Below, piece by piece: positions 844-42,868 of a stretch of DNA of 57,500 nt. The stretch is from assembly GCF_000091045.1 (NCBI RefSeq), contig NC_006685.1, forward strand, positions 210,001-267,500. Direction: 5' to 3'. Below the pieces are notes generated by a model, which was given only the letters and a program-made list of their open reading frames with translations, did no database searches and was not told the origin of the DNA. Made by a program: the position numbers and the translations under genes. How positions within the stretch are numbered: the stretch's first letter is position 1; every line of letters starts with the position of its first letter. Source of the stretch: Cryptococcus deneoformans JEC21. Its lineage: Eukaryota; Basidiomycota; Tremellomycetes; Tremellales; Cryptococcaceae.

Positions 844-1184
844 TTACCAGGGGTAAGCTATTAGATGGGAGATGCTATTCAGTATAATGCCCATGGAAAT
901 GAAAACGAGACAAGCGAAGAGTAGAGGAAGGAAAAAAGGATGAAGATGATGATGAAAAACGAGATAAGGATGAGGATGAGGACGAGGTCACGTAAAACAC
1001 GGACAGGAGAGATGGGCCCACATAGTGAGCATTCACAGAACGGTATGAATTAGTACTTACCACCACCGGGGGCGCCGAAGTTCTGAGACTTAACGCTGGG
1101 CGCAGGCTCAGCAGCAGGGGCAGCGGCAACGAGGGCCGGGGCGATGAGGACAAGGGCAGCAGTGAAAAGGGTGGTGAAAGACAT
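844..1184 (-). CDS. CQS1: Quorum-sensing-like peptide precursor Qsp1 (Cqs1)
   Basis: This encodes the precursor of a secreted 11-residue signalling peptide. Exon 1 is 1061-1184 and exon 2 is 844-857; joined they give a 138-nt reading frame of 45 residues. The N-terminus MSFTTLFTAALVLIAPALV is a hydrophobic signal peptide, followed by an Ala/Pro-rich pro-segment and then, after KSQ, the C-terminal peptide NFGAPGGAYPW. That peptide is identical to the one I know from Cryptococcus as Qsp1, reported to be secreted as a pro-form, matured by the protease Pqp1 and taken up by the transporter Opt1; it affects density-dependent growth and virulence. The last four residues, AYPW, come only from exon 2, so splicing is needed to make the known peptide. 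Read unspliced, the frame stops three codons into the intron, giving a C-terminus of GGGKY. The 203-nt intron is long for this genome. A TATA box lies about 110 nt upstream of the start. Confidence 0.93.
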
Positions 1185-1294: not shown

Positions 1295-1302
1295 TTTATA
1301 TA
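1295..1302 (-). promoter_or_regulatory. TATA box of QSP1
   Basis: The minus strand reads TATATAAA about 110 nt upstream of the QSP1 start codon. This spacing is plausible for a strongly expressed gene with a short 5' leader. The assignment is by position only. Confidence 0.6.
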
Positions 1303-3063: not shown

Positions 3064-3220
3064 TTAGTTCAGATGATATTGTCGCGTGCGCCAGACTGCA
3101 ACATTTTACAAAAGTAACGAACAACAAACGCGTTTTTTTCTCTAATAACGCGCCTCCTTTTTGCTGTCATTTAAATACTTTTCATCCTCCTAAGAAACTT
3201 ATAACGTATTCGAAAACATC

Positions 3221-6136
3221 ATGGCTTCGACTGATTTGCACTCTTCGGATCCTCTTTCTCCCCAACCCGGTATCTGCCCACCTTCTCCTATTATCCGCGT
3301 CCCAGAGGCCGAAATATACTCGGGACATCAATCAATGGCGTTTGATTTTGATGAAGGTAATCTCCATGCCATGGAAGGTTCGGATTCATCGGAAGTCTCC
3401 AATATTGCCGACGAAGAGGATAGTGAGGATGACATTATCCAGGCTCCCATTGACTCCTTCAACGACGACGAGATGATCTCTACCCCTGGGTTCGACGAGC
3501 AAGCGTACTACCAATCTAAAGATGAGTGTAAAGGCGCTGTCCAGGCTTACGCAGCCTCACAAGGCTTCGCTGCTGTTATTAGGCGGAGCAAAAGGAAGAA
3601 GCCAACGAAAACTCACAAAGAGGGCAGAGAATTGATACAATACTCGTGCATCTTTGGAGACGAGTATCGCTGCACACGAGGGGACAGTTTCAAAGATGTG
3701 CGCATTAGGACTATACAGACCGTAAAAAATGGATGCCCTTTTGCTGCTGTGGCTTGGGAGATGGCAGAGGCAGAGGTAAAAGAGCATGGTGGAGACAAAT
3801 GTTGGACTTGGAAGGTCGTGAATGCCTCGCACAATCATCCGCCTGTCGCCAATATTGGAATTGCACTTCTTCGGCGTGCTTCGCGGACGCCTGAAGCCAA
3901 AGAGCTGATCAACACGTTGATCGACAGCCGGACTCCATTCCCCTCCATCATCAGTACCATGTCTCAGCGTTTCCCAACGGTAATGTTGACATCGGAAGAC
4001 TTGCATCGTCTCGCCTTTCGTCGTCGTGCAGATCTCCGTGCTGGCTCCAGTGCAAGTGCTGCTTGTATTCGGCAATTAGTGAGCAATGATGAGCTCCATC
4101 GTCCGTTTGTCAACACACGCGATGAACTCATTGGTTTGGTTTACACCAAGCGAACTGCTCGCGCACTGATTCACCGATTTCCCGAAGTCCTTTTCTTCGA
4201 CTGCACATACAAGACGAACCTGTACCGGATGCCCATGCTCCATATCGTCGGATCCACATCGACAGGTATGACATACACTGCAGGAGTCATCTTGATGTTG
4301 CGTGAAACCACAAACTGGTATACCCAAGCTCTCAATTCGTTCTTCGAACTTGTCGGCAAACCGGATGTCAAGGTTGTCATTACCGATCGTGACCCAGCAC
4401 TCATCAACGCTCTCATGTCTGTCCTCCCCAAGGCTTACCGCTTCTCCTGCTTCTGGCATCTTCAAGAAAATGTCAAAAGCAATATAAGGCCCTGTTTCGT
4501 TGACGAAGAGAACATCGTCATGGCTGTCTCGAATTTCTGCAAAGCTTGGGTACGGTATTGTGTACATGCAAAATCGGATGAGCAGCTTGAGGAAGGTTAT
4601 CGGAAGATGGAAGAACTTTATCCTGGTCAGAAATATGCTCGAGCGATCTCGTATATCCGGGGTTTGGATGAAATCAAGGAGCGCTTTGTACATGCCTATA
4701 TCAACAAGCAACTTCACTTCGGACAAACCGGTAATTCACGCTTAGAAGGTCAGCACGCAACTCTTAAGAAATCAATTGACACCAAGTACGGTGATCTTCT
4801 GCTTGTCATTGGGTCTCTAAGTACGTATTTTGATCAGCAGTGGTTGAAAATTTTGAAAAGAATTGAGCTCGAGAGAACGAGGTGTGCTACACATATTCCC
4901 AGTACTTTTGTTCGGGTATGTTCCTTCCTTCTTTCTGTCCTTTTTGTAATCGTGCTGATATAATTGTTTAGTTAAAAGGCTCCATATCCCGCGCTGCAAT
5001 GAAGCTTCTTGCTGAGCAGTTGACTTTGGCCAAAAGATATTTGGGTGATTACGATGAAGGTGTCGATGACTTTGAAGAATCACACCCGTGCAGTGGCTCG
5101 TTTACAAAATCCCATGGATTGCCCTGCGCCCATCGTCTCATTAGCTTCGTCCGGGAAAGAAGACACCTTGAAAAGGATCACATTCATCCTCACTGGCGTC
5201 TCGGGTCTGCCGCAAGTCTCAAAAGATACCTTGACCATATTAACAGACTTGTTGGCACCCCAGATACATCAGTCATACGGCTGGATGATGTATTTGACTT
5301 CGGTGAGGACCAAGAACTTATCCTCGATCCACCCATTTTAAGCACCAAGCGGGGAAGGAAGGCCCCTAATCCACCAGTGTTGCAGGAAGACCGGATGTCG
5401 GCACCTTCAGGAAGGTACTTGACTCAGTCAGAAAGAATTATGGGGGCTGGATTGACCCAGCGAAAAAAAGGGCGCTGTAAACACTGCCAAAGTTCCACTC
5501 ACTATACCAAAGACTGTGCGCGTGTTCAAGCGTCTCGAAGGGTCGACAAAAACCAAGAAGCTGAGAATGCAGGTGAAGACAGAAGAGTTCTTGTCCCAGA
5601 TAGCGATGATGAGGAAGGAAATGAGGAAGATCTTGTCGAGGTACCGAATGAAGTTGGTCCTTTCATTCAAAGATTAGCCCAACTCGATGACCTTGCGCTT
5701 ACATATTTTATAGCCCAATCTTCGTCCAAAAAAGCATTCTCGGTCACAATATCCTGCCCCCTCTCAAATATATCCGTCACATGCTGTTCAAATGCAGCAT
5801 CTTCCTCCTGAACCCTCGGTCCCCCAATTACCCCCTTCTTCCCAATTCTATCCACCATTATCACAATACTATCCCCCTGCTCCACAGCATTACCCAACTT
5901 CAAAATACCATGTGCCTCCTACCCAGTATATCCCTTACAACCAAGTATTATTCCACAATCATTCCGAAGCCCCAACTCCCTATCATTACCCTTCTGTTAG
6001 TGGATACAATAATCTCCAATCTCCTCAAATTTACCAATACAACTTAGAGAATAATGTGGGCAAGGATGCGAGCATTCGATCGCAGGAGGATAGTATTATA
6101 ATGCAGCGAGGGAGAGATCGACATAGCTGGGAATGA
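3221..6136 (+). CDS. MULE transposase (spliced)
   Basis: This should catalyse cut-and-paste transposition of the surrounding element. Proposed exons are 3221-4915, 4972-5652 and 5714-6136, giving 932 residues. An N-terminal FAR1/WRKY-GCM1-like zinc-binding region (about residues 90-210, ending in ASHNHPP) precedes the DDE catalytic core. Likely acidic residues are Asp327 in FFDCTYKTN, Asp389 in ITDRDPA and Glu509 in SRLEGQH. A SWIM-type zinc finger follows (around 605-621, HPCSG...LPCAH), then a CCHC zinc knuckle near 733-746 (CKHCQSSTHYTKDC). The C-terminus is rich in Pro, Tyr and Gln. The second intron has a GTTGGT donor and a CTTAC branch point and is supported by frame continuity. A one-base slip in the A6 run near 5728 would also join the frames. 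No stop interrupts the core, so the gene looks intact. Confidence 0.85.
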
Positions 6137-40471: not shown

Positions 40472-42868
40472 ATGGCGCTCTTCGGCTCTTCACCGCTCGT
40501 GGACGCCTTTCCATCTCCTCGATTTTCCGAACCTCCTTCACCCACCAAAACGGAGACCGATCTCCCCATCGATGTCGATCAATCCTTCAACTCGTCCTTG
40601 TCGCTTAGCGACTCACCCTACTTTTCCCCTACTCCTTCCATGGCTGTGGGTGCCAAATCTGCTGGGTCGTCCAGTATGCTCTCTGCCGCTCCTCCTTCTT
40701 TCTCACTGAAGTGTAAGCAACCTGAGGCTGCTCCGACTCAAGTAAAACCACCGTTACAGTCGAAAAGTACCACTGAGACGACGCTTGGTTCCGGACAGTT
40801 GAGCCGAGGGCGCTCCTTTGGGATGGACATCACTAACAATGTTCTGCACCAGCCAGACTCCAATATAAGGAACAACAAGGGCAAGATGCTCCCTCCAGCA
40901 GTGCCCGAAGCCAGGATGTTAAAAGCCAATGCGTCTGTACCTATGCAATGGACGTCATCTAACGAGGAATTGGGTGAATGCTCCAAGAATTCGTCTCTAT
41001 TTGGTGTCCCCAGGACGGAGGTAGGTGATATCCACAGCTTGATGCAAGAATCTATTAGCTAATGTTATCATTTACAGAGTGACCCCGCTATTTCAGGGTC
41101 TCCTCTCTCTTCCTTGAGTCGGGATGACAGCGCCATGCAGGTTGACTCACCCCAAATCAGGTCAAACTCTCGACCAGGATCGCTCATGGCATCACCTGCG
41201 CTAGGCGGACCTGCATCATGTTCAAGTTCTCCTGACCTCGGGTCATTCTTTTGTGACTCACCTGCTCCATCATCTCAAGCGCCACCCGCTAAGCGACGTA
41301 GCCTTGTCAGTGGCCCTCCAGCGTCCCCTTCGTCTGGTTCCCCTTCAGCCAAACGCACATCTTTAGGGCTCGGTGTCTCACGCCCTCCTTTAGACAAGAC
41401 TGCTTCATCTAGTGCACTGCTCTTTGGAGGGGGAAGGGCGAATACAGTGGCTTCTCGGCGTGGACCTTCCTATAAAAGACCTACTCTTGGTCCGCTTGCG
41501 GCTCCATCCTGCGATGCCAGTAGAACTGCTTCAACCAACTCTGCCTTCCCCATCCTATACGGGCCACCTAAGCAGACCCTCGGCCAATCTGGTACATTTC
41601 CTCGTGCAGCCAATGCACCTATGCGACGAGCTTACTCTGTATGTGACCAAAACACTGCAAACGAGATGGACGACGACGATAGCGAATTTGAAAACTCCCC
41701 TTGTGTTGGTGCTCACGCTGAATATGCACGGAGATACGGTGCACGCATGGGCCCCAGAATTGATGGGTCGCCCGGATTCAAGTCCGTCCGAGCTTCTATT
41801 GCCGCGTCGGGTGAAGGTGTCGTCAGTCCACTTCATAAAGGAAAGAAAACGAGCCCTTATGGGCCTGGAGGGCTACCTGGGTTCGGAGATAATGAAATAG
41901 ATGGAAAAATCTTGCCCTGTCACAAGGTAAAAGAGGATGGTTTGGTGAGGATTACACCCGATACCGTAAGTTTTATTTCATGGCTTTTGTCCCAGTCGCT
42001 AACAGTTTACCAGCTTGACGAGCTGCTCAGCGGCAAGTACTCACATAAGATCAAGCGCTACCATGTCCTCGATTGTCGGTTCGATTATGAGTACGATGGT
42101 GGTCACATTGCTGGCGCAATCAATGTGAAGTCCATGGACGCCCTTGACAAATTGCTTCTTTCTGAGGCTGATGGAATTCACGCCGACGGCGAATGTCTGC
42201 CGAGACCCAGTCGAAGTGGGCAACTTGAAGATGGCCAACCAGTAGTCCTTATATTCCATTGTGAATTTAGCGCCAAACGAGCCCCTACTTTCGCCAAACA
42301 TCTCAGGTCTCGAGACCGTCTGCTCAACAATGCCATTTATCCTAAGATATACTATCCCGAAGTTTACATCCTCGAGGGCGGTTATTGTGGGTTTTACCAG
42401 ACTCGACCGGAACGTTGTGATCCCAAGGGCTACACGCCCATGGACGATCCCAAGCACTTTGAACGTCGAGACTCAGATTTGCACGACTTTCGCAAGTTCA
42501 GCCGCACTCGGTCGTTCACTTATGGCGAGCAACAGCAACCTTCCTCTCGCGCCCTACTCCCATGTCCTCCTCTCGCTTTTGCTGCGGCTTCGGCTGCTGC
42601 TGCTCGTCGGATCGGCGCTCAGGGGGGGAGTACCAGTGGTAACAATACAATCAAAGAAGAGGACGACCAGGATAACAGCTCCTCACCGCATCCGGGGGAT
42701 AGCAGTGCGGAGATGGATACCGACGCTAGCCCTTGCCCACGTGCGGTCTTGAGTCTCGGTCAACCGCCGATTTTTGGCTCAGCGAAGACACGAGTGCTGG
42801 GGAGAGTAGGGTTCAGCCGTGTCGCTTCTTATGCTGGTACTACCACCATTCCTGCTCCACGACCGTAA
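40472..42868 (+). CDS. CDC25: M-phase inducer phosphatase Cdc25
   Basis: It is a dual-specificity phosphatase that removes inhibitory phosphates from the cyclin-dependent kinase and triggers mitotic entry. Exons 40472-41020, 41078-41965 and 42014-42868 give 763 residues. The N-terminal 470 residues are Ser/Pro-rich with many SP sites, the usual regulatory region. The rhodanese-like catalytic domain starts near 480 (LDELLSGKY) and has YHVLDCRFDYEYDGGHIAGA, then the active-site loop HCEFSAKRAP with Cys562 and Arg568. It ends with YILEGGYCGFY and a C-terminal Ala-rich tail. The second intron is only 48 nt and has no in-frame stop. Confidence 0.95.

What the first reader, a model, noticed from the sequence alone, without database searches (positions are those of the whole stretch)
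844..1184. QSP1/CQS1 quorum-sensing-like peptide gene, easily missed by gene finders
The 45-residue spliced product ends in NFGAPGGAYPW, identical to the Cryptococcus Qsp1 peptide as I know it. The final residues AYPW come from a 14-nt coding exon separated by a 203-nt intron. An ORF scan sees only a 44-codon frame with the wrong C-terminus. It is the most biologically significant gene in the window.
Basis: partly seen in the sequence, partly recalled or inferred. Interest (0 to 1): 0.9.

Follow-up and report, generated by a model that had tools for sequence, protein, structure and literature searches.

The report
Known Cryptococcus quorum-sensing peptide gene QSP1/CQS1
This is the already known gene for Qsp1, the 11-residue signalling peptide of the yeast Cryptococcus; its last four residues depend on one splice junction, and a public protein record for this gene shows a different ending.

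Summary
On the minus strand, 1184-1061 joined to 857-844 encodes 45 residues ending NFGAPGGAYPW, the published Qsp1 sequence. Unspliced, the frame gives 44 residues ending GGKY. The host contig has the same length as the contig behind public protein CNC00730 of C. deneoformans JEC21, so this is almost certainly JEC21 QSP1/CQS1: a known gene, with no second copy found.

One point goes beyond the finding. The intron ends in two possible acceptors 17 nt apart, both AATAG|C. The downstream one gives AYPW; the upstream one gives ASPI, as in the public CNC00730 record. Of five database representatives only one, C. deuterogattii, ends AYPW. The nearest branch-like motif (CTGAA) lies 4 nt before the upstream acceptor and 21 nt before the downstream one; in 21 stretches of this genome 4 nt is not a favoured spacing, and 21 nt lies just past the favoured 10-20 nt. 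I read ASPI as a gene-model error; a minor real isoform is not excluded. RNA reads would settle it. Known gene, modest interest.

The parts
1061..1184 (-). QSP1/CQS1 exon 1, coding part: hydrophobic leader, pro-region and NFGAPGG of the mature peptide, plus the first base of the Ala codon
   Evidence: product 91-98% identical to four database proteins over 93-100% of its length
858..1060 (-). 203-nt intron, GTAAGT...TAATAG; its interior is free of AG for a 181-nt run (876-1056)
   Evidence: average Cryptococcus intron 65 nt (PMC5851062, first of three parts read)
844..857 (-). exon 2 coding part, CTTACCCCTGGTAA: completes Ala, then Tyr-Pro-Trp-stop
875..877 (-). alternative acceptor TAG (intron position 186); gives ...NFGAPGGASPI, as in public protein CNC00730
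858..860 (-). acceptor TAG (intron position 203) that gives the Qsp1 ending AYPW
878..882 (-). branch-like CTGAA (intron 179-183); its A is 4 nt from the upstream and 21 nt from the downstream acceptor
   Evidence: placed by motif only
1296..1302 (-). TATATAA box, starting 118 nt upstream of the ATG
1050..1060 (-). intron-retained reading: GGKY then TAA stop
   Evidence: the stop is not shared by relative P0004

Best explanation
This is QSP1/CQS1 of Cryptococcus deneoformans JEC21. It makes a 45-residue secreted precursor whose last 11 residues are the quorum-sensing peptide Qsp1. The 203-nt intron is removed with the downstream acceptor, so that exon 2 supplies Tyr-Pro-Trp. Shown here: the reading frame, splice-site consensus, the identity of the 11-mer with the published peptide, no second copy found. 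From papers on C. neoformans and relatives: secretion as a pro-peptide, maturation outside the cell by the protease Pqp1, import by Opt1, action through Cqs2, Nrg1 and Liv3. Inferred: that the same holds at this locus, and that the public ASPI ending is a gene-model error.
For: Exact 11-mer in the spliced frame equals Qsp1 as printed in PMC5959073, PMC9426920, PMC4071575 and PMC5959062 (passages). Public record CNC00730 shares the first 42 residues and comes from a contig of 2,105,742 bases, the length of this contig. C. deuterogattii P0001 ends AYPW. C. floricola P0125 keeps QNFGAPGG. Hydrophobic leader: the 9-residue windows starting at residues 5-14 have mean hydropathy 2.16-2.92. A C. deneoformans mutant lacking Qsp1 is partly rescued by synthetic Qsp1 (PMC9790007, passages). 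The upstream acceptor lies 4 nt after the branch-like CTGAA; over 21 stretches of this genome the first YAG after CTRAY shows little excess at 3-9 nt (49 against 42 in the control) and a strong one at 10-20 nt (171 against 38). The ASPI 11-mer is in none of the held papers.
Against: No RNA or mass-spectrometry data seen here. The public JEC21 protein ends ASPI, not AYPW. CTGAA itself is hardly enriched at branch spacing (20 against 16 at 10-20 nt; 6 against 4 at 21-25 nt), and 21 nt is just past the favoured range (21-25 nt: 15 against 12 for CTRAY), so the branch point of the AYPW splice is not established. PMC9426920 prints the peptide as 11 residues in Results but with a further G in Methods, and PMC6687208 did not find Qsp1 in its supernatants.
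Confidence: 0.93

Rival explanations
1. Both acceptors are used: the gene makes Qsp1 (AYPW) and a second 11-mer ending ASPI, in a ratio set by acceptor or branch-point choice.
For: The two acceptors end in the same AATAG|C and both keep a 45-aa frame. The public CNC00730 model uses the upstream one. The interior is AG-free for 181 nt, the longest such run in the window and sixth of 30,975 runs sampled, which leaves a distant branch point possible (CTCAC, CTCAT, CTCAT at intron 32, 81, 87; CTCAT is enriched at branch spacing, 31 against 6), from which the first AG met would be the upstream one. 1,462 alternative splice-site events were reported in this variety (PMC5006051, passages).
Against: The upstream acceptor has no CTNAN between 4 and 90 nt before it. 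The ASPI 11-mer is in none of the held papers. [quoted passage not shown] The AG-free run is only mildly unusual for its base composition (base shuffle P = 0.02).
Confidence: 0.12
2. The unspliced 44-aa reading ending GGKY is a functional alternative product (regulated intron retention).
For: Database protein P0003 ends GGKY and P0004 passes through GGKY; intron retention is common in this species (7,879 cases, PMC5006051, passages).
Against: The stop after KY is missing in P0004, which runs on to 65 aa, so that ending is not conserved.
Confidence: 0.03
3. A gene that merely resembles QSP1, not QSP1 itself.
For: None found.
Against: No second copy found in the genome, exact 11-mer, public JEC21 gene on a contig of the same length.
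Confidence: 0.01

Closest known systems
QSP1/CQS1 of Cryptococcus neoformans (CNAG_03012 in PMC8561399 and PMC6687208, passages)
   Same: Mature peptide NFGAPGGAYPW; small secreted precursor (PMC7537855).
   Different: Nothing seen.
CNC00730, public protein of C. deneoformans JEC21 (P0002)
   Same: Residues 1-42 identical; contig of the same length.
   Different: Ends ASPI, which is what the acceptor 17 nt upstream gives.
C. deuterogattii I307_03691 (P0001)
   Same: 45 aa, mature 11-mer identical.
   Different: Four substitutions, all in leader and pro-region.
C. floricola B9479_001724 (P0125, 106 aa)
   Same: Starts MSFTT, keeps QNFGAPGG.
Gram-positive peptide signals that are exported and re-imported by oligopeptide permeases (PMC7537855, Discussion)
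   Same: Secreted, imported, acts on transcription.
   Different: No sequence relation tested. According to that paper the bacterial peptides bind TPR-domain regulators, while Nrg1, Liv3 and Cqs2 have no TPR motif.

Membership tests
QSP1/CQS1 | Mature peptide NFGAPGGAYPW at the C-terminus | tested here: met
   depends on the inferred splice 1061/857
QSP1/CQS1 | Secreted precursor with a hydrophobic leader | tested here: met
   hydropathy only; no signal-peptide predictor was run
QSP1/CQS1 | Same locus as the public JEC21 gene CNC00730, and orthologues in the genus | tested here: met
   contig length 2,105,742 in both; relatives. Synteny with H99 not tested
QSP1/CQS1 | Junction 1061/857 used in the transcript | not testable with these tools
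   no RNA reads; the public protein fits 1061/874
QSP1/CQS1 | Maturation by Pqp1, import by Opt1, response through Cqs2, Nrg1, Liv3 | not testable with these tools
   reported in PMC7537855 (Introduction and Discussion); the genome holds WOPR-domain matches at two places (4 matches) and OPT-transporter matches (22, on four contigs), not matched to named genes

The most novel reading that the evidence does not exclude
One gene, two signals: choice between two look-alike acceptors 17 nt apart makes either Qsp1 (AYPW) or a sister 11-mer (ASPI). A control of Qsp1 in which one G is replaced by A is inactive (PMC5959073), so an ending changed at two of its last three residues would probably be a dud or a competitor, and splicing would set the signal dose. 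The first bases of exon 2 (CUUACC) can also pair with the donor (GGUAAG) and could favour the downstream acceptor.
Probability: 0.1. Interest if true: 0.6.

Novelty: already known. Interest (0 to 1): 0.22.

Why it matters
The gene is known and matters to Cryptococcus biology: in papers seen, Qsp1 affects cell-wall integrity, mating and virulence (PMC7537855, abstract and two sections) and, when added, lowers titan-cell formation (PMC5959062, PMC5959073, PMC9426920, passages), although in PMC5959073 the qsp1 mutant formed titan-like cells as the wild type did. What is useful here is practical. The public JEC21 protein record has other last residues than the published peptide, so a search of predicted proteins with the full Qsp1 sequence, or proteomics against that record, could miss it in its own reference strain.

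Tried and rejected
Relatives at DNA level: viral contigs and genome contigs gave none (304 and 159 pattern matches, none confirmed), so intron and exon 2 could not be compared between species.

A WOPR-type motif TTAAAGTT upstream at 1423-1430 was considered as a Liv3 site (motif recalled): 2 occurrences in the window against 1.93 expected. Rejected.

Donor and exon 2 pairing (GGUAAG with CUUACC): the fold is not significant (z -1.32; 21 of 200 shuffles fold as well), and by my own count 4 of the 32 codon choices for AYPW give CTTACC. Kept only as a lead.

The dinucleotide shuffle for AG in the intron is uninformative, since it keeps the AG count at zero; replaced by a base shuffle.

Original papers on the peptide (Lee 2007, Homer 2016, Tian 2018; the DOI of Lee, the other two recalled) are not held, so the published gene structure could not be checked. 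A library search for CNC00730 found one paper, unrelated by its title; one for the ASPI 11-mer found none.

Full report
What is there. On the minus strand of the window, an ATG at 1184 opens a frame that runs to a donor at 1061/1060 (G|GTAAGT). Joining it to 857 gives 45 residues, MSFTTLFTAALVLIAPALVAAAPAAEPAPSVKSQNFGAPGGAYPW, with a stop at 846-844. Without splicing the frame stops after 44 residues at GGKY.

Identity. The last 11 residues equal Qsp1 as printed in PMC5959073, PMC9426920, PMC4071575 and PMC5959062 (all four found in search; passages read; PMC9426920 adds a final G in its Methods). A search of about 5.8 billion proteins found four relatives, one named CNC00730 of C. deneoformans JEC21, on a contig of 2,105,742 bases. 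The contig of the window has the same length, and the genome has 14 contigs and 19.05 Mb. So this is almost certainly the JEC21 gene. CQS1 and QSP1 are names of CNAG_03012 (PMC8561399, passages). No second copy was found (withheld stretches not covered).

The C-terminus. The public CNC00730 protein (P0002) is identical to the spliced product over 42 residues but ends ASPI. A script that tried each AG from intron position 40 on as acceptor shows why: the TAG 17 nt upstream (877-875) gives exactly ASPI and also 45 residues. The two acceptors share AATAG|C. After the donor these are the only two AGs of the intron. Across five database representatives one ends AYPW (P0001), one ASPI (P0002), two follow the intron frame (P0003, which stops at GGKY, and P0004, which runs on), and one, C. 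floricola P0125, keeps QNFGAPGG and then goes on DPPPTVRHW. Cluster members behind these representatives were not seen. So one of five shows the Qsp1 ending. This bears out 'easily missed by gene finders'.

Which acceptor. I measured, in the window and 20 further 10-kb stretches (257,500 bases, 21,460 of them N), the distance from a branch-like CTRAY, preceded within 15-70 nt by a donor-like GTRNGT, to the first YAG, against the same sequence reversed or complemented. At 10-20 nt: 171 against 38. At 3-9 nt: 49 against 42. At 21-25 nt: 15 against 12. Two CTNAN lie near the acceptors: CTAAT at intron 197, whose A is 3 nt from the downstream acceptor and beyond the upstream one, and CTGAA at 179, whose A is 4 nt from the upstream acceptor and 21 nt from the downstream one. 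That disfavours ASPI from this branch point. It does not prove AYPW: 21 nt is just outside the favoured range, and CTGAA is hardly enriched (20 against 16 at 10-20 nt, 6 against 4 at 21-25 nt). A distant branch point remains possible: the run 876-1056 has no AG over 181 nt, the longest in the window and the sixth of 30,975 runs in 472,080 strand-bases, and CTCAT, present twice in the intron, is enriched at branch spacing in the sample (31 against 6). A base shuffle of intron positions 7-183 gives zero AG in 2% of trials, so the run is only mildly unusual for its composition. The weight for AYPW rests on the published peptide, on C. deuterogattii P0001, and on the partial rescue of a C. deneoformans mutant by synthetic Qsp1 (PMC9790007, passages; no peptide letters in what I read). 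The ASPI 11-mer is in none of the held papers.

How it works. According to PMC7537855 (Introduction and Discussion), Qsp1 is secreted as a pro-peptide, matured outside by the protease Pqp1, taken up by way of the transporter Opt1, and changes promoter binding of Cqs2, Nrg1 and Liv3. PMC10312749 calls CQS1 the most abundant transcript in stationary phase and in RPMI medium (passages). PMC6687208, on the other hand, did not find Qsp1 in its supernatants and gives its extraction as a possible reason (passage), and PMC8561399 notes that the mutant survives as the wild type does in the rabbit subarachnoid space (passage). The window fits a well expressed secreted peptide: a TATATAA box 118 nt before the ATG and a hydrophobic leader. 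The genome holds WOPR-domain and OPT-transporter matches, not matched to the named genes. Everything after transcription is taken from papers, mostly on relatives.

Intron retention. The GGKY ending is not conserved: P0004 reads through to 65 residues. I give a functional retained form little weight.

Surroundings. About 2 kb upstream at 3194-5811 lies a MULE-type transposase gene whose 2,618 bases occur in seven full-length copies of about 100% identity, this one included, besides partial ones. Of the 10 kb fetched on the far side 7,000 bases are withheld and were not studied. The window also encodes a CDC25-type phosphatase, a biotin-protein ligase and a CAF-1 subunit A domain, so the claim that this is its most significant gene is a matter of taste.

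Verdict. The modest new point is that the public protein record of the reference strain bears another C-terminus than the published peptide, for a reason visible in the DNA, and that RNA reads can decide between gene-model error and a second peptide.

Noticed in passing
window 3194-5811 (+): MULE-type transposase gene (PF10551, E 1e-22); seven full-length copies of about 100% identity in the genome, which suggests recent movement, one of them about 2 kb upstream of QSP1.
   Followed up: partly
window 876-1056 (-): 181-nt stretch without AG inside the QSP1 intron, pyrimidine-rich; the longest AG-free run on either strand of the window.
   Followed up: yes
window 844-1075 (-): Start of exon 2 (CUUACC) is the reverse complement of the donor GGUAAG, and resembles the 5' end of U1 snRNA as I recall it; chance not excluded (4 of 32 codon choices).
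   Followed up: partly
window 41063-42868 (+): CDC25-type M-phase inducer phosphatase (rhodanese domain) with close relatives in Cryptococcus and Kwoniella.
   Followed up: no
P0125 (C. floricola B9479_001724): Public protein keeps QNFGAPGG then a long tail unlike Qsp1; probably another mispredicted QSP1 second exon, in a species that I recall as non-pathogenic.
   Followed up: no
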